Shown piece by piece: positions 1 through 7,312 of a stretch of DNA of 7,312 bases. The notes under the pieces were generated by a model. That model made no database searches. It saw only the letters and a list, made by a program, of their open reading frames with translations, and was not told the origin of the DNA. The position numbers and the translations under genes are program-made. Location of the stretch: the NCBI GenBank assembly GCA_040756715.1, contig JBFLYE010000043.1, forward strand, positions 1-7,312, written 5' to 3'. Each line of letters begins with the position of its first letter. The stretch's first letter is position 1. Origin of the DNA: JBFLYE01 sp040756715 [NCBI: bacterium] (GTDB lineage Bacteria; UBA9089; UBA9088).

Positions 1-490
1 ACTCGGCAACGAGCTTTGCAAAGTCATAGCCCCTAATTCTACTATCATAGCCAATTACAATCTTGGCAAATCCCTTGTTTAGCCCAAATTTGGCAACCCC
101 AGCCGAGGTGATTAAAAGGGTTATGTTATTAAGGGTGTTTGGGCCCTTAAGGATGCAAGCATCAATTCCATCATTTTTAAGCTTTATGATCTCTTCTTTA
201 TTACCTGCCATCAAGCCCCTTATCCCACCGGTTCCAAAATCTAGCTTTTTTCTAAATGCATTAACCAGGTCTTCCCATCTTTTGTTTATAATTGCATTTT
301 GTATTCCCGCCTTAAGATTGGGAGAAACCTCATCAATCTTTTTATCTTTCAGCCATTCCTCAAGATATGGCAGGGTATTTTTCTTTGCAGAATTGTAAAG
401 CCCTATATCTATCTTACCATTTTCAAGGCTTTTCTTTAGATATTCATCAATGCCTTTTTCTGCTTCAGAAATCAATCTTTCAACCTCCAT
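1..490 (-). CDS. Phosphoglucomutase/phosphomannomutase family protein, N-terminal part (runs off window)
   Basis: This is the first 163 residues of an alpha-D-phosphohexomutase, which interconverts hexose-6-phosphate and hexose-1-phosphate in the cytoplasm. The reading frame is open to the window edge. It contains FGTGGIRG at residues 85-92, the family's conserved start of domain 1 (compare FGTAGLRG), and GYDSR at 147-151 after a beta strand. The catalytic phosphoserine loop (TASHNP type) would lie beyond the window and cannot be checked. The roughly 80-residue lead before FGTGGIRG, with the WEDLVNAFRKKLDFG context, resembles the longer PGM2-like branch rather than short GlmM. The ATG at 490 lies inside the end of the upstream GlmU-like gene (11-base overlap), and no clear Shine-Dalgarno sequence precedes it, so translation is probably coupled. 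Substrate specificity (glucose, mannose or glucosamine) is not decidable. Confidence 0.88.
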   Translation of the reverse strand, partial: MEVERLISEAEKGIDEYLKKSLENGKIDIGLYNSAKKNTLPYLEEWLKDKKIDEVSPNLKAGIQNAIINKRWEDLVNAFRKKLDFGTGGIRGLMAGNKEEIIKLKNDGIDACILKGPNTLNNITLLITSAGVAKFGLNKGFAKIVIGYDSRIRGYDFAKLVAE

Positions 491-1709
491 TTTTTAACCA
501 CGCCTTCCTTTGCATTTTTGATTCATCAAATATATATTTGAACAATTGCAAAGCTTTATTGTCAAATGTGAAATTCCTTCGTTCTAGGACAATTTTGGCT
601 GTTTTTATGGCATTTTCTAAAGAGAAACAGCGACGAAGGAAATCATTTCCCCAAGCAAAGCTTGGAATCTCCTTTTCCATAATTAAGCCTCCTCCAAATA
701 GGTTGCAGGAAAAGCCAATTACCACCCCAGTGTTTAAACAAACGCCAATTCCAATTTTGCTATGGTCTCCAATAAAGCAGCCAATTTTTATCCTTTTTGT
801 TTTTGTAATAATGCCATTTTGTTGGACGCTAATTTCAGAATAATTATTCTTAAGGTCAGAATTTGTGGCTAATGCTCCTAAATTTACCCATTCTCCGATA
901 TAGGAGTGTCCGATAAAACCCTCATGGTATTTATTGCTATTTCCCATAATAATACTATTTTCTACCTCCCCTCCAATTCGACATCCACTTCCAAAGGAAG
1001 AACCACTTATCTTACCACCCACCAATTTGCATTCATCTCCTATAAAGGCTGGACCCTTAAGATATGTGAATGGTTTTATGGAACCCCCTTTTCCTATTAT
1101 TACCGGACCTTCTCTGCTATCAATAACAGAAAAGGTATCGGCAGAAATATTGTTGTCTGCAAATATCTCCTTTCCATAAATAAAGGAGTCTCCTATATTG
1201 CCTTGCAAGCCTTTGTCCTTAAAATATTCATCAAAATCTGAAATTATCAATTCTTGGTTATGAAAGATTAAATCCCAGATATATGAGAATGTTAAGATAT
1301 CAATTTCAATCGTTTTTAGCCCTTCTGTTATTTTTTTAGAGAAATCTTCTGAGCTATCTTTAAGCCTCTTTCTGAATTCTTCCTGTGACAAGACAATGGC
1401 TATGGGTATGCCATTTTTGACATAAGCAATAGAGGGATTGCTATTTTTAAGCTCCTTAATGAATCCTAAATCCTTTTTTTGAAATACACAAGAGCCATTG
1501 ATAAGAATAGCTTTATCAAAATGAGGAATTTCAGAGTGATTAGCTAAATATGGCCTGCAAATGGTGAATATTTCAAAATCGCTGAAATGGTGTTTTATGC
1601 GTTCTAAATTTGTTTTTGCACCTGAAAGGAGGCTATAGGTAGGCCTTGATAGGGAAATTGGATAAAACCTTGAATAATTTTCATCCTCAAATACAATAAT
1701 ACAATCCAT
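480..1709 (-). CDS. GlmU-like sugar nucleotidyltransferase / left-handed beta-helix acyltransferase-type protein
   Basis: This 409-residue protein belongs to the putative sugar nucleotidyltransferase family (NTP_transf_4-like N-terminus followed by a hexapeptide beta-helix). The N-terminus with ISLSRPTYSLLSGAKTNLER (residues 18-37) matches the family's PLTFTRP...G..T..EK pattern. Residues about 175-350 form hexapeptide repeats, and NKYHEGFIGHSYIGEWVNLG (259-278) followed by NSDLKNNY (283-290) is highly characteristic of this family. Its presumed role is to make a nucleotide sugar from a sugar-1-phosphate, possibly with an acyl transfer, but the reaction of the family is poorly established and it is not canonical GlmU. 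The following phosphohexomutase overlaps it by 11 bases and could supply the sugar-1-phosphate. The ATG at 1709 fits the family N-terminus, yet lies only five bases after the tRNA-fMet 3' end and has no Shine-Dalgarno sequence. Confidence 0.85.
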   Translation of the reverse strand: MDCIIVFEDENYSRFYPISLSRPTYSLLSGAKTNLERIKHHFSDFEIFTICRPYLANHSEIPHFDKAILINGSCVFQKKDLGFIKELKNSNPSIAYVKNGIPIAIVLSQEEFRKRLKDSSEDFSKKITEGLKTIEIDILTFSYIWDLIFHNQELIISDFDEYFKDKGLQGNIGDSFIYGKEIFADNNISADTFSVIDSREGPVIIGKGGSIKPFTYLKGPAFIGDECKLVGGKISGSSFGSGCRIGGEVENSIIMGNSNKYHEGFIGHSYIGEWVNLGALATNSDLKNNYSEISVQQNGIITKTKRIKIGCFIGDHSKIGIGVCLNTGVVIGFSCNLFGGGLIMEKEIPSFAWGNDFLRRCFSLENAIKTAKIVLERRNFTFDNKALQLFKYIFDESKMQRKAWLKNGG

Positions 1710-1714
1710 TTTTC

Positions 1715-1786
<72 letters not shown>

Positions 1787-1801
1787 ATTATTTCTATTTT
1801 T

Positions 1802-1823
1802 CTGCCGGGGGTCGGACTCGAAC
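1802..1823 (-). repeat. 22-bp duplicate of the tRNA-Leu 3' end
   Basis: Positions 1802-1823 are identical to 2005-2026, which form the 3' acceptor strand, the discriminator base and most of the T arm of tRNA-Leu(UAA). The duplicate cannot belong to a working tRNA: the bases that should close the T stem (CGAAG in RNA sense) do not pair with CCGAC, and no matching 5' acceptor strand follows within a tRNA-sized distance. Perfect direct repeats of a tRNA 3' end are the usual footprint of site-specific integration or of a broken duplicated tRNA. Here the two copies are only 203 bases apart. Confidence 0.8.
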
Positions 1824-1943
1824 TTCGGATTTTCTAAGATTCTTCATTCGCTTCGCTCATTCAGAACCTAACAAAATCTCTTGTTCTAAGGCCAGCCTCA
1901 CTTCATCCTCCCATAAGGTCGGCGTTCGGCTGGCTTCGAGTCC
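1814..1943 (-). other. Inverted-repeat element, possible structured RNA or small mobile remnant
   Basis: This gene-free spacer between two tRNAs is unusually structured. The outer ends form a perfect 9-bp inverted repeat, GGACTCGAA at 1814-1822 against TTCGAGTCC at 1935-1943. Inside are two further hairpins. One pairs 1829-1843 with 1863-1877 (15 positions: 12 Watson-Crick, one G.U in the minus-strand RNA, two mismatches), and its loop holds GAATGA repeated around GCGAAGC. The other pairs GCCAGCC (1891-1897) with GGCTGGC (1928-1934). Together they can be drawn as a three-way junction that would be transcribed with the tRNAs. The outer repeat uses T-arm sequence of the tRNA-Leu duplicate. No coding frame is convincing. 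It could be a spacer RNA, a palindromic mobile element inserted at a tRNA T-loop sequence, or a decayed tRNA; function is unknown. Confidence 0.5.
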
Positions 1944-2005
1944 TCTTACCCATCTTTCATTTTTCTTTCCTGTATCCTAAATACTGTCTTCTGTATTCTT
2001 GCTCC

Positions 2006-2090
2006 TGCCGGGGGTCGGACTCGAACCGACACGGAAAAAATTTCCAGTGGATTTTAAGTCCACTGCGTCTGCCAATTCCGCCACCTCGGC
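2006..2090 (-). tRNA. tRNA-Leu (UAA)
   Basis: An 85-base class II tRNA folds here. The acceptor is GCCGAGG/CCCCGGC with A73, the D stem is GCG/CGC, and the anticodon stem is GTGGA/TCCAC around loop CTTAAAA (anticodon UAA, reading UUA and UUG). The long variable arm has a GGAAA/TTTCC stem, and the T arm is GTCGG-TTCGAGT-CCGAC. CCA is not encoded. The acceptor contains an A5/C68 mismatch; related bacterial tRNA-Leu genes usually have a T in the 3' strand that would pair with A5. The 3' end is repeated at 1802-1823. The gene begins almost exactly at the predicted transcription start of the upstream promoter. Confidence 0.95.
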
Positions 2091-4521: not shown

Positions 4522-4997
4522 TATTTATCCTCCATAAAAAAGTCTCTTGCTGTAATAGTCATATCTTTATAAAATTGTAGCTTAGTATTTTTTATTACCC
4601 GCTCAAAAAAAGTTGGAGCCCAAGATAAAAAATAACTCCTTCTAAACTCTTCTTCTTCCTGCTTTTTCCCTTGAGTCCAAAGATATGCCATAAACTCAAG
4701 CTCTGAACAGATATGGTCTGGGAGTTCTTTAAACTGAGCATTTAACCCAAGCCCTGCTTTCTCATATTCTGCTAATACCTGCATGGTTGAAGGGCCCATC
4801 AGCCTCCCATCTATATATACCGAACCATAAGGAGGAGCAATCATCTTTGGATAACTGTTAATGAAAAGCCTGGTGTATTCTATCCGGAGTTCATCCAATG
4901 AATAATCTTCACCTAAGCTCCTAAGCAAAACCTCATCTGGATACAAAAAACATTTTGAAATCCCAAGGTATATCTGGGGTCGTTCATTTGCCATCAT
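4521..4997 (-). CDS. TorD/DmsD-family molybdoenzyme maturation chaperone
   Basis: This 158-residue protein resembles cytoplasmic TorD-like chaperones, which bind the Tat signal of a molybdoenzyme and hold it for cofactor insertion before export. Supporting stretches are EYTRLFIN followed by APPYGSVYIDGRLMGPS, PDHICSELEFMAYLW, and the C-terminal FLSWAPTFFERV...FYKDMTITARDF, which together follow the family pattern. The start overlaps the catalytic-subunit stop by ATGA, with an AGAGGTGG-type Shine-Dalgarno sequence just upstream. The first two codons are both ATG, so either may be used. Its length is slightly below that of classic TorD. It sits between the catalytic and ferredoxin genes and very likely serves that catalytic subunit. 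Confidence 0.85.
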   Translation of the reverse strand: MMANERPQIYLGISKCFLYPDEVLLRSLGEDYSLDELRIEYTRLFINSYPKMIAPPYGSVYIDGRLMGPSTMQVLAEYEKAGLGLNAQFKELPDHICSELEFMAYLWTQGKKQEEEEFRRSYFLSWAPTFFERVIKNTKLQFYKDMTITARDFFMEDK

Positions 4998-6376
4998 GCC
5001 TTTACCACCTCTACAAATGTATCATGAAAGGCTGAGCCACCGGTAATGTCTGCTTTAGCACTTTCTATTAGCGCTGCTTGAGAGCCACCCTTATTATAAG
5101 CTAACCTCAAGCCGGGTGAAAAATGACCAAACCCCATCACCATATAAACACAATCCGGCCGGATGCGGTCTGTTACTTTGAGTTTGATCTTTGTGCTGCC
5201 TACCTTACTCTTTACCCATACATAATCACCATCTCTTAATCTCTTAGCCTGAGCTACCTTGGGATTCATCCATAATTCGTTCTCTGGGTAGATCTCATGC
5301 AACCATTGATTATTCTGGGTCATAGAATAGGAGTGGACAGAGTGTCTTGAAGTAATCAGCCTAAATCTTCCAGCAGGAGGTTGTAGATTAGCCTTATAAA
5401 CTGGTAATGGATGATGTCCTTTCTTTTTCAGGATATTTGAGTATAGCTCTATCTTGCCCGAAGGGGTGTTAAACTTAAGCTGCCTTCCTCTACGGTATGG
5501 AGAGAAGCCAGTTTTTGGTTTAAAAACACCATTTGCTTTAAGCCATCTATAATCAACCCCTAATGGCTCTACCTGCTGGTTTATGATATCAGTTACATCT
5601 CTATATTTAAAATACTCTCCTATCCCCAATCTTTCTGCCAGTTGCTTAAATATCCACCAACTCGGCTTAGAATCAAACATAGGTTTTATTGCTTGCTGAC
5701 GCAAGGCTACAAATGGGGTTGGGTAGGGTTCACTTGCCTGAACTGGGTCTGTCCGCTCAAGATAAGTACATTCTGGAAGCACAACATCAGAAAATAGAGC
5801 TGTCTCTGAAAGTAAGACATCTATAGTCAAGGCAAAATCAAGTTTTTTGAATACCTCTATTGTTCTGTTTGTATCTGGCATATTGAGCATGGGGTTCATC
5901 CGAATATTCACCCAGCCCTTAATGGGATATGGCTTTTCAAAATAGGCATTATCCCTGGCATTCTGGAGCAAGCCTTCTTCAGGAGTCCAGATATACTTTG
6001 AAACTTCATCTATTCTGGGAATAGATGGCATCTGCGGGTGATGTTCTGGGGTGCCTAATTCAATCTTCTCCTTAAGGAAGATTCCACCAGGTGCCCCCCA
6101 GTTACCGGCTAATACATTCAGGATATGAATTGCCCTACGGATCTGAACATCATTCTTATGCCAGGCTGTTCTCCAGCCAGGATGAACCAGAGCACTTGGG
6201 GCAGCTTGGGCAAACTCTCTTGCTACTTCTCTAATCACTCCGGCATCGATGTCGCACTCCTTCTTAGCCCATTCGGGAGTATATTTTTGAATGAATGCAC
6301 GAAGTTCCTCAAACCCAAATGTATTCTCTTGGACAAATTCCTTCTGATAAAGTTCCTCATTTATGATGACATTAAT
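4994..6376 (-). CDS. Molybdopterin oxidoreductase catalytic subunit (PsrA/PhsA-like), C-terminal portion after frameshift
   Basis: This frame encodes the last 460 residues of the catalytic subunit whose N-terminal part lies at 6372-7169. Read from 6376 it begins INVIINEELYQKEFV, which continues the N-terminal piece without a gap in sense. If translated separately, the first start after the break is the GTG at 6238. It includes the molybdopterin domain stretches NVLAGNWGAPGG, IRMNPMLNMPDTNR and SDVVLPECTYLER, the last two typical of PsrA/PhsA-like enzymes. The C-terminal dinucleotide-binding barrel carries SRHSVHSYSMTQNNQWLHEI and GFGHFSPGLR. The probable role is reduction of a sulfur compound such as polysulfide or thiosulfate at the outer membrane face; arsenic, selenium or other oxyanion substrates cannot be excluded. 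The stop overlaps the chaperone start by four bases. Confidence 0.88.
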   Translation of the reverse strand: MNVIINEELYQKEFVQENTFGFEELRAFIQKYTPEWAKKECDIDAGVIREVAREFAQAAPSALVHPGWRTAWHKNDVQIRRAIHILNVLAGNWGAPGGIFLKEKIELGTPEHHPQMPSIPRIDEVSKYIWTPEEGLLQNARDNAYFEKPYPIKGWVNIRMNPMLNMPDTNRTIEVFKKLDFALTIDVLLSETALFSDVVLPECTYLERTDPVQASEPYPTPFVALRQQAIKPMFDSKPSWWIFKQLAERLGIGEYFKYRDVTDIINQQVEPLGVDYRWLKANGVFKPKTGFSPYRRGRQLKFNTPSGKIELYSNILKKKGHHPLPVYKANLQPPAGRFRLITSRHSVHSYSMTQNNQWLHEIYPENELWMNPKVAQAKRLRDGDYVWVKSKVGSTKIKLKVTDRIRPDCVYMVMGFGHFSPGLRLAYNKGGSQAALIESAKADITGGSAFHDTFVEVVKA

Positions 6377-7169
6377 TCAGAGAAAGGAGAAGCGCTAAAT
6401 CCGTCCCGGCTTTTATGGGAAGCCATCTTCTTGCCTTTGATGAAGTTACAGTAAAACGAGGGTCTACATAGACCATTTTTGCTCCATTTGATAATGCCTC
6501 AATTAACCATTGGGTATGAATATTTTCGAGACTCTCTAAGATATTATGTCCAAGAATGATGATGTATTTACAGTTTTTAATATCAAGCCCAGGATGCAAA
6601 AATAATGGAGTACCATAGGTAACCTTTTCGGCGATGATTCTGGAGATAGCACAAAGGCTTAAGTTGGTAATCAGATTTGGGCTGCCAAACCCATAGGCCA
6701 GATTGTGATAGAGGCCACCAGTAAGCATATGGGAATAGGTAAAAAGAACAGCTTCTGGCCCGTATTTTTTCTTGATCTCAAGCAACTTTTGAGCCGAATA
6801 ATCCAATGCCTCATCCCAGGATGCCCTCTTCCATTTATTCTCGCCCCGACTACCAGCCCTTATTAGAGGGTATTTTAGCCGATCAGGATCATATACCTGC
6901 TTTATAATTGCATTCCCCTTGGCACAAATCTTTCCATAGTTAAAGGGGTGATCAGGATTCCCCTCGATCTTCTTGACCAGGCCATCTGCTACCTTGATCC
7001 TGGTCCCACACCTCCAGGCGCAGTATTCACAGATAGAATAGACCCATTCTTCCTTCTGCTTAACTGCTGCTTCAGCCAAGCTAACCAAGTGGCGAAGCTT
7101 TGGGTCAAACAGGAAGTATCCTGTTTCTGCTCCAATCAACTTGATGAAGTCTCGCCTTGATATAGACAT
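6372..7169 (-). CDS. Molybdopterin oxidoreductase catalytic subunit (PsrA/PhsA-like), N-terminal portion with Tat signal
   Basis: This 265-residue piece starts with a twin-arginine signal, SRRDFIK (residues 4-10), so the enzyme should be exported folded. A 4Fe-4S site follows: Cys47, Cys50, Cys54 and Cys82 in the C-x2-C-x3-C-x27-C pattern of this family. Cys173, in SLCAISR after GFGSPNLITN, is the candidate molybdenum ligand, which groups it with cysteine-ligated enzymes such as polysulfide, thiosulfate and periplasmic nitrate reductases. The frame ends in AGTDLALLLSLN-stop, where relatives continue with ALI.V...ELYD. Dropping one A at 6376-6377 joins it to the downstream frame, giving about 724 residues, a normal length. 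GGAAG lies ten bases before the ATG. Upstream I see only AT-rich repeats and no firm promoter. Confidence 0.9.
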   Translation of the reverse strand: MSISRRDFIKLIGAETGYFLFDPKLRHLVSLAEAAVKQKEEWVYSICEYCAWRCGTRIKVADGLVKKIEGNPDHPFNYGKICAKGNAIIKQVYDPDRLKYPLIRAGSRGENKWKRASWDEALDYSAQKLLEIKKKYGPEAVLFTYSHMLTGGLYHNLAYGFGSPNLITNLSLCAISRIIAEKVTYGTPLFLHPGLDIKNCKYIIILGHNILESLENIHTQWLIEALSNGAKMVYVDPRFTVTSSKARRWLPIKAGTDLALLLSLN

Positions 7170-7212
7170 CTTATAGTATCTTCCATCACTTAGTGCAAAA
7201 ATAGTATTTAAG

Positions 7213-7301
7213 AAATTTTGAATTCTAAATTTTGAATTTTGAATTGAAAAAGGTTAAGTTTTATAAAATTTTGAATTCTAAATTTTGAATTTTGAATTGA
7301 A
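7213..7301. repeat. Two AT-rich 36-bp repeat units in tandem arrangement
   Basis: Positions 7213-7248 are repeated exactly at 7266-7301 (period 53). The partly similar spacers contain GGTTAAGTTTT and GGTTTAAGTTT. Each unit is itself built from TTTTGAATT-type sub-repeats around a GAATTC palindrome. The array lies about 45 bases upstream of the molybdoenzyme start and runs close to the window edge, so more copies may follow. Such AT-rich intergenic repeats are common in some uncultured bacterial lineages. I see no spacers of CRISPR type and no coding frame. Confidence 0.8.
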
Positions 7302-7312
7302 GGTTTAAGTTT

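What the first reader, a model, noticed from the sequence alone, without database searches (positions are those of the whole stretch)
1802..1943. Folded inverted-repeat element between two tRNA genes, built on a copied tRNA-Leu 3' end
The 130-base spacer can form a closed three-way junction: a perfect 9-bp outer stem, a 15-position hairpin (1829-1877) and a 7-bp hairpin (1891-1934). The outer stem uses the tRNA T-loop/T-stem sequence itself. It would be transcribed with tRNA-Leu and tRNA-fMet. It might be a processing-guide spacer RNA, an unnamed small RNA, or a palindromic element that targets tRNA T-loops.
Basis: partly seen in the sequence, partly recalled or inferred. Interest (0 to 1): 0.62.

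Follow-up and report, generated by a model that had tools for sequence, protein, structure and literature searches.

The report
tRNA-tail repeat matching its tRNA
Behind about half of this uncultured bacterium's tRNA genes sits a folded repeat that carries a second copy of that very tRNA's 3' end and an antisense strand to it, the same design as a puzzling repeat long known behind an E. coli tyrosine tRNA.

Summary
The tRNA-Leu/tRNA-fMet spacer holds an insert: a linker, an antisense arm (S'), a two-hairpin body and an exact 17-nt copy (R, positions 57-73) of the tRNA-Leu 3' end. A covariance model finds 41 copies, all in 5 genomes of one order; the other 381 genomes of a wider search have none. 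A tRNA gene (20 anticodons) lies upstream on the same strand in 37 of 41; the other 4 sit at contig edges. S' is antisense to its own tRNA's T-arm in 35 of 37 as computed, 36 on inspection (12.9 with shuffled labels). Stems covary. Two syntenic empty sites in a congener show precise insertion. A second body type keeps the design.

Closest known: E. coli tyrT repeats / RtT RNA (RF00391), same S'-body-R design; sub-threshold RtT matches in two other lineages are such elements at tRNA-Ser genes. Sequence membership in RF00391 fails. I read it as a structured tRNA-trailer element that spreads among tRNA genes and is rebuilt to match each. Its RNA function is unknown.

The parts
2006..2090 (-). tRNA-Leu(UAA), the host tRNA
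   Evidence: ARAGORN; Rfam
1944..2005 (-). Linker, 62 nt, part of the insert (absent from the 11-nt Leu-Met spacer of the congener G001); linkers of the family are purine-rich
1935..1943 (-). S' GGACTCGAA: reverse complement of tRNA-Leu positions 54-62; 5' strand of outer stem P1
1891..1934 (-). Hairpin 1 (GCCAGCC...GGCTGGC, with GA/GA internal loops)
1828..1878 (-). Hairpin 2 with conserved core GATTTTGTTAG...CTTAGAAAATC and tip GAGCGAAGCGA
1820..1823 (-). GTTC before R; could pair with GAAC at the base of hairpin 2 or extend P1 (my reading)
1803..1819 (-). R: exact copy of tRNA-Leu positions 57-73 (GAGTCCGACCCCCGGCA); its first 6 nt are part of the 3' strand of P1
1788..1802 (-). 15 nt between R and tRNA-fMet; takes the place of the 11-nt spacer of the empty site in G001
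1714..1787 (-). tRNA-fMet, downstream neighbour

Best explanation
It is a tRNA-trailer repeat of the same design as E. coli RtT RNA / the tyrT repeats. It sits at the 3' end of a tRNA gene and, by position and strand, would be transcribed with it. Anatomy: purine-rich linker, antisense T-arm strand (S'), two-hairpin body, copy of the tRNA's own 3' end (R). S' and R close the body into a three-way junction. Shown here: the design, the restriction of the copies found to tRNA trailers, the match of S' and R to each host tRNA, tandem copies, presence and absence at two syntenic sites within a genus, covariation. Inferred: copies spread from tRNA gene to tRNA gene, and R (a direct repeat) and S' (an inverted repeat) are rewritten from the recipient tRNA by recombination or template switching, which leaves the tRNA intact. 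Once there, the element is kept as a structured RNA, probably released as a trailer RNA with a tRNA-like 3' end. What that RNA does is not known.
For: 41 copies in 5 of 19 genomes of the phylum; the same 5 of 386 genomes in a wider search. 37 of 41 have a tRNA gene upstream on the same strand, 33 within 12-66 nt and 4 as later units of an array; 4 of 41 are at contig edges. A core-only pattern without S' or R has 21 matches in the 5 genomes, all of them among these copies; reversed-pattern control 0. S' matches positions 57-62 of its own tRNA in 35 of 37 as computed, one more on inspection; shuffled labels mean 12.9, maximum 23 of 37 in 10,000 permutations. P1 fully Watson-Crick in 29 of 35 copies with readable S' (3 of the 35 have lost R); shuffled mean 10.8, maximum 20. 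Covariation score 0.280 against 0.122 shuffled, 0 of 500 as high. GA/GA loops in the folds of 37 of 38 distinct copies against 61 of 760 shuffled. Empty syntenic sites in G001 for Leu-Met and Gly(tcc). Bodies 99.1% identical at Tyr and Gly tRNAs with different, fitting S'. E. coli tyrT/tyrV has the same layout; RtT-like elements follow tRNA-Ser genes in G110, G386 and G150.
Against: No mobilising enzyme was found: Y1 transposase has no match in the 5 element genomes and reverse transcriptase only in G001 and G002; other enzyme families were not searched. Some copies look long inherited in place: Val(cac) in G000 and G003 before a gene 41% identical, His in G000 and G002 before histidyl-tRNA synthetase genes 54% identical. 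The Tyr site keeps its linker while its body differs between G000 and G001, so part of the spread may be gene conversion of bodies. Three further G000/G001 differences (Ser, Gln, Arg) rest on the tRNA alone; the surroundings did not align. One of five covariation measures, the number of further pair types, is no higher than in shuffles (19 against 18.8). No expression data. RtT and the window's bodies share no detectable sequence homology, so the shared design could be convergent.
Confidence: 0.57

Rival explanations
1. Not mobile: an old functional trailer RNA domain (processing, stability or small-RNA role) at many tRNA genes, kept by selection, with bodies shared by gene conversion. S' and R match the tRNA because the RNA needs it.
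For: Conserved core while hairpin tips turn over. Val(cac) elements in G000 and G003 stand before related genes (41% identity over 216 aa), both 73 nt from the tRNA, with compensatory changes in hairpin 1 and P1 and an exact R in G003. tRNA-His, element and histidyl-tRNA synthetase gene follow one another in G000 and G002, and R tracks three tRNA differences (in G002 the link across two contig ends is inferred).
Against: Present or absent within one genus at two syntenic sites; 18 of 34 tRNA genes examined in G000 lack it, so it is not required at tRNA genes in general; body type differs at the same tRNA between G000 and G001.
Confidence: 0.25
2. A pure DNA by-product: palindrome correction and slippage between short direct repeats keep S', R and the tRNA alike, with no function and no mobility.
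For: Tandem units at several loci; rtT RNA is listed as a 175-bp variable-number tandem repeat among insertions and deletions in a Salmonella comparison (PMC2658671, one table passage seen).
Against: Conserved mismatches (GA/GA in 37 of 38 copies; G.G and T.T in the core) should be erased by palindrome correction; it does not explain how one body reached tRNA genes with 20 anticodons.
Confidence: 0.1
3. Remnant attL/attR of integrative elements that use tRNA 3' ends.
For: A direct repeat from the T-loop to the 3' end, as at integrase sites (recalled).
Against: One donor site cannot carry a different 17-nt end for each tRNA; the insert is about 200 bp; antisense S' and conserved body are unexplained. 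Integrase genes in the genomes were not searched.
Confidence: 0.04
4. RNA strand-exchange switch: R replaces the tRNA's own 3' strand while S' holds the displaced one.
For: The alternative fold scored lower than the native one in 25 of 25 copies computed.
Against: The same preference appears after shuffling S' (23 of 23) or the whole insert (23 of 23); mean difference -7.0 observed, -5.2 and -5.7 kcal/mol shuffled; so it is mostly a property of the model.
Confidence: 0.04

Closest known systems
RtT RNA (Rfam RF00391) / E. coli tyrT-tyrV 178-bp repeats (rttR)
   Same: Same order of parts after a tRNA gene: spacer, S' antisense to the tRNA 3' strand (GGGGAAGGAT), hairpins, copy of the tRNA 3' end (19 of 20 nt in the three copies behind tyrV), tandem repetition at 178 bp. 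A tandem GA motif is reported in RtT (PMC7657543, one passage seen); GA/GA loops are in 37 of 38 distinct copies here.
   Different: No sequence match either way: RF00391 does not hit the window or four element loci, and R1 gives at most 6.2 bits on the E. coli locus. S' covers tRNA positions 57-62 plus 0-4 nt here, 59-68 in E. coli (read). Here tRNA genes with 20 anticodons carry it; in E. coli I looked only at tyrT/tyrV. R ends at position 73 in the window and includes CCA in E. coli, as the tRNA genes do.
Integrase attachment sites at tRNA 3' ends (recalled)
   Same: A direct repeat of the tRNA 3' end flanks an insert and the tRNA stays intact.
   Different: Insert of about 200 bp; the repeat differs with each tRNA; antisense arm.
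REP/MITE-like palindromic repeats (recalled)
   Same: Short, structured, many copies.
   Different: Only tRNA trailers, tRNA sense strand, ends that match the local tRNA; no Y1 transposase match in these genomes.
3' external transcribed spacer RNAs such as 3'ETS-leuZ (recalled)
   Same: RNA from a tRNA trailer.
   Different: No tRNA 3' copy or antisense arm that I recall; not tested here.

Membership tests
RtT RNA (RF00391) | Covariance model score at or above the gathering cut-off | tested here: not met
   No RF00391 match in the window at gathering, in L029, L093, L043, L060 at E up to 1, or in G000-G004 at E up to 0.1
RtT RNA (RF00391) | Closing stem of a strand antisense to the tRNA 3' part with a copy of that tRNA's 3' end | tested here: met
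   same feature in E. coli
RtT RNA (RF00391) | Tandem GA motif | tested here: met
   37 of 38 distinct copies have a GA/GA loop in the predicted fold, 61 of 760 shuffled; motif in RtT from PMC7657543
RtT RNA (RF00391) | Processed RNA product released from the tRNA precursor | not testable with these tools
   needs RNA data; the E. coli product is recalled, not read
Integrase attL/attR | Repeat identical to one donor end at all integration sites | tested here: not met
   R differs with each tRNA
Integrase attL/attR | Integrase gene in the element or genome | not tested
   no integrase search was run; the window's insert of about 200 bp is far too short for one
IS200/IS605 or REP elements | Y1 transposase in the genome | tested here: not met
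   PF01797 without a match in the 5 element genomes (78-97% complete), present in 10 of 19 genomes of the phylum
tRNA | Cloverleaf gene | tested here: not met
   ARAGORN and Rfam find only the two flanking tRNAs

The most novel reading that the evidence does not exclude
A class of minimal mobile RNA or single-strand DNA elements homes to tRNA T-arms and rebuilds both its ends (antisense arm and 3' copy) from whichever tRNA it lands in. E. coli's tyrT repeats and the tRNA-Ser elements of two other bacterial lineages belong to it, and the order described here is where it has spread to about half of the tRNA genes.
Probability: 0.35. Interest if true: 0.9.

Novelty: new variant of a known kind. 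Interest (0 to 1): 0.78.

Why it matters
The tyrT repeats of E. coli have been known since the 1970s (recalled) as a local oddity. These data make them one case of a wider design: at tRNA genes in unrelated bacteria the trailer carries a fold whose closing helix is written in the sequence of the tRNA in front of it. tRNA, antisense arm and copy have to change together, so what the trailer fold does, and how it gets to a new tRNA, becomes testable by comparison and by simple deletions. If the ends are copied from the target, it is a way for an element without genes to fit any tRNA.

Tried and rejected
Strand-exchange switch: the alternative fold wins in 25 of 25 copies, but also after shuffling S' or the insert (23 of 23 each), so rejected as mostly an artefact.

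Target-site duplication of 44-51 nt: suggested by flanks of Gly in G000 and His in G001, dropped because the empty Gly site of G001 joins the tRNA directly to the downstream sequence; partial tandem units explain it better.

Integron attC (recalled motif RYYYAAC...GTTRRRY): the boxes come in reverse order here; not pursued.

Chance hits: 3 of 8 stretches from the core pattern in named genomes (Phycisphaerae, Christiangramia, Clostridiales) have no tRNA gene, and the one R1 match in them scores 11.3 bits; dropped. Matches to the hairpin-2 tip in G031 (3) and G019 (1) lie away from tRNA genes where I looked.

Other families of the phylum: a scan for a 3'-end copy within 340 nt behind tRNA genes found 0 of 29 in G014, 0 of 33 in G012 and 1 of 33 in G006, the one without antisense arm (60 regions fetched, one search lists 123 tRNA matches). 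In the same scan 21 G000 tRNA genes gave 3 copies; it missed the Val(cac) element, whose R has mismatches, and the decayed Gln(ttg) one, so the scan is not fully sensitive.

The two zeros: one is an error of my script (G002 tRNA-His copy at a contig edge, which does match over 7 nt), one is a real deletion in S' (G001 Trp). MAFFT alignment A4 was shifted at the 3' end and not used for counts. Strand bias of folding is moderate: sense lower than antisense in 25 of 35 copies, mean z -4.5 and -3.6.

I therefore moved 0.03 from the best explanation to the first rival.

Full report
What is in the window. tRNA-Leu(UAA) (2006-2090) and tRNA-fMet (1714-1787) lie on the minus strand. Read along that strand, the spacer is: a 62-nt linker, GGACTCGAA, hairpin 1, hairpin 2, GTTC, then GAGTCCGACCCCCGGCA, which is tRNA-Leu from position 57 to 73, then 15 nt to tRNA-fMet. 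GGACTCGAA is the reverse complement of the T-arm sequence TTCGAGTCC. It pairs with the copy and closes a three-way junction (-51.6 kcal/mol, z -4.6; plus strand z -2.2). Rfam at its gathering thresholds names only the two tRNAs.

It is a repeat family. DNA search found relatives in the same genome and in genomes of the same genus, family and order. I built a covariance model, R1, from 12 copies. Over the 19 held genomes of the phylum it gives 41 matches in 5 genomes, all of one order: G000 13, G001 13, G002 11, G004 3, G003 1. Over 386 genomes, which include those 19, the same 5 match and the other 381 do not (stricter filters). That scan may leave out the window's own genome.

Behind tRNA genes. 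37 of the 41 copies have a tRNA gene upstream on the same strand: 33 at 12-66 nt, 4 as later units of an array. The other 4 lie at contig edges. Twenty anticodons occur among the 37. A pattern of the core alone, without S' or R, has 21 matches in the five genomes, each one of these copies, and none when read backwards. In G000, 16 of 34 tRNA genes examined carry an element: 13 by R1, 2 with a second body type, 1 decayed by my reading; 18 do not. RF00005 counts 37 tRNA matches in G000, so about three were not examined.

The ends match the host tRNA. S' equals the reverse complement of positions 57-62 of the tRNA in front of it in 35 of 37 copies as computed, 36 after correcting a reading error; the last has a deletion in S'. 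With tRNA labels shuffled the mean is 12.9 and the maximum 23 of 37 in 10,000 permutations. An unusual case fits too: tRNA-Val(gac) with AAGCCC has GGGCTT. Beyond position 62 the copy R has at most one mismatch to its own tRNA in 26 of 35 copies (17 exact); 3 of the 35 have lost R. Where no tandem unit follows, the identity stops within 5 nt of the tRNA's end. P1 is fully Watson-Crick in 29 of 35 copies with readable S'; the other six are the three without R and three with point changes. Tandem copies count separately in these numbers.

Structure. On A2 (12 copies), 97.6% of cells pair against 88.3% in shuffles, 12 pairs change on both sides against 6.8, and the covariation score is 0.280 against 0.122, each with 0 of 500 shuffles as high; the number of further pair types (19) is no higher than in shuffles (18.8). 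A2 is the alignment from which I drew the structure, so the slid controls favour it. On A1 (17 copies) RNAalifold by itself predicts P1, the base of hairpin 1 and hairpin 2, with 9 of 24 pairs changed on both sides. The core GATTTTGTTAG...CTTAGAAAATC is nearly fixed while hairpin tips differ between copies. At the base of hairpin 2 the pairs GAAC/GTTC, GAACTA/TAGTTC and CTTC/GAAG replace one another (my reading). GA/GA loops occur in the predicted folds of 37 of 38 distinct copies, against 61 of 760 shuffled ones.

Insertion. G001 has tRNA-Leu 11 nt from tRNA-fMet where the window has the insert, and an empty tRNA-Gly(tcc) site that runs straight into the sequence found after the insert in G000; both sites are syntenic. 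The inserted unit is therefore linker + S' + body + R at the tRNA's 3' end. Ser(tga), Gln(ctg) and Arg(cct) have an element in G001 and none in G000, but their surroundings did not align, so orthology of the sites is not shown. The distance from tRNA end to the body is bimodal: 28-44 nt in 19 first units, 66-72 nt in 11, 18 nt in one, none at 45-65 (two copies left out as unreadable); the three type V copies have 73. I cannot explain this. Linkers are purine-rich. The Tyr and Gly elements of G000 have bodies 99.1% identical but different, fitting S'. The Tyr element of G001 has nearly the same linker as that of G000 but another body, so bodies can also be replaced in place.

A second body type (V). 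tRNA-Val(tac) and tRNA-Val(cac) of G000 carry an unrelated body in the same frame: S' GCAGGATTT-GAAG, body, R starting at position 57. G003 has one at tRNA-Val(cac), before a gene 41% identical over 216 aa to the one in G000. There the tRNA reads AAAACC in place of AAATCC; S' reads GGTTTT, R is an exact copy (in G000 it has two mismatches), and hairpin 1 differs by compensatory changes. Similarly, tRNA-His, element and histidyl-tRNA synthetase gene stand together in G000 and, across two contig ends, in G002 (synthetases 54% identical); the tRNAs differ at three places in 57-73, and S' and R follow each.

The known relative. From memory I recalled the E. coli tyrT repeats and RtT RNA and tested them. 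Behind tyrT and tyrV of K-12 lie four units, each with GGGGAAGGAT or a one-base variant (antisense to the tRNA-Tyr 3' strand), hairpins, and the tRNA-Tyr 3' end (19 of 20 nt in the three behind tyrV, 178 bp apart). All four match RF00391, whose consensus closing stem is S' with R. RF00391 over 386 genomes gave two sub-threshold matches (27.6 and 22.7 bits, cut-off 45), and both proved to be such elements behind tRNA-Ser genes, in G110 and G150. In G110 three tRNA-Ser genes in a row each have an element with R identical over 18 nt and an S' that fits that gene (GAGGTAGGAT, AGAGAGAGGG, GGGGGGGA); G386 has one at Ser(cga). For G150 R is 18 of 18, while S' (GGGGAT) is my reading; the script picked another stretch. 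The class of G110 has 8 held genomes, 2 with matches. The window's elements share this design but not the sequence. PMC7657543 mentions a tandem GA motif in RtT (one passage). PMC2658671 lists rtT RNA as a 175-bp variable-number repeat (one table passage). My ten literature searches in the open-access library showed no account of the wider family; the original E. coli papers are recalled, not read.

Not found. Reverse transcriptase PF00078 has no match in G000, G003 and G004, one each in G001 and G002; Y1 transposase PF01797 has none in all five. The genomes are 78-97% complete, and other enzyme families were not searched. A scan of tRNA trailers in three other families of the phylum found one 3'-end copy in 95 and no antisense arm.

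Verdict. It is a new variant of a known but little understood kind, with a spread and a matching to the local tRNA that I have not seen described. Spread with ends rewritten from the recipient tRNA is my preferred reading; how it moves and what the RNA does remain open.

Noticed in passing
window 4994-7169, minus strand: A molybdopterin oxidoreductase (Molybdop_Fe4S4, Molybdopterin, Molydop_binding) is split into two reading frames around 6240-6370, next to NrfD, 4Fe-4S and nitrate-reductase-delta-like genes: a break in the gene or in the assembly.
   Followed up: no
window 480-1709, minus strand: A sugar nucleotidyl transferase gene (NTP_transf_4) starts 4 nt after the end of tRNA-fMet.
   Followed up: no
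five element genomes, tRNA trailers: Distance from tRNA end to element body falls in two classes, 28-44 and 66-72 nt (type V copies 73); unexplained.
   Followed up: partly
G031 C36:59526, G019 C1:154334 (L006, L008): A hairpin like the tip of hairpin 2 (around GAGCGAAGCGA) also occurs away from tRNA genes in unrelated bacteria.
   Followed up: partly
G000:C49 (L094): tRNA-Val(gac) is followed by one full unit and the start of a second one that runs into a reading frame.
   Followed up: no
G110:C2 (L111): Three tRNA-Ser genes in a cluster each carry an RtT-like element fitting its own tRNA; behind Ser(gga) a second unit begins.
   Followed up: partly
window 7201-7312: Short AT-rich direct repeats (AAATTTTGAATTCTAAATTTTGAATTTTGAATTG) at the contig end, seen by eye.
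   Followed up: no
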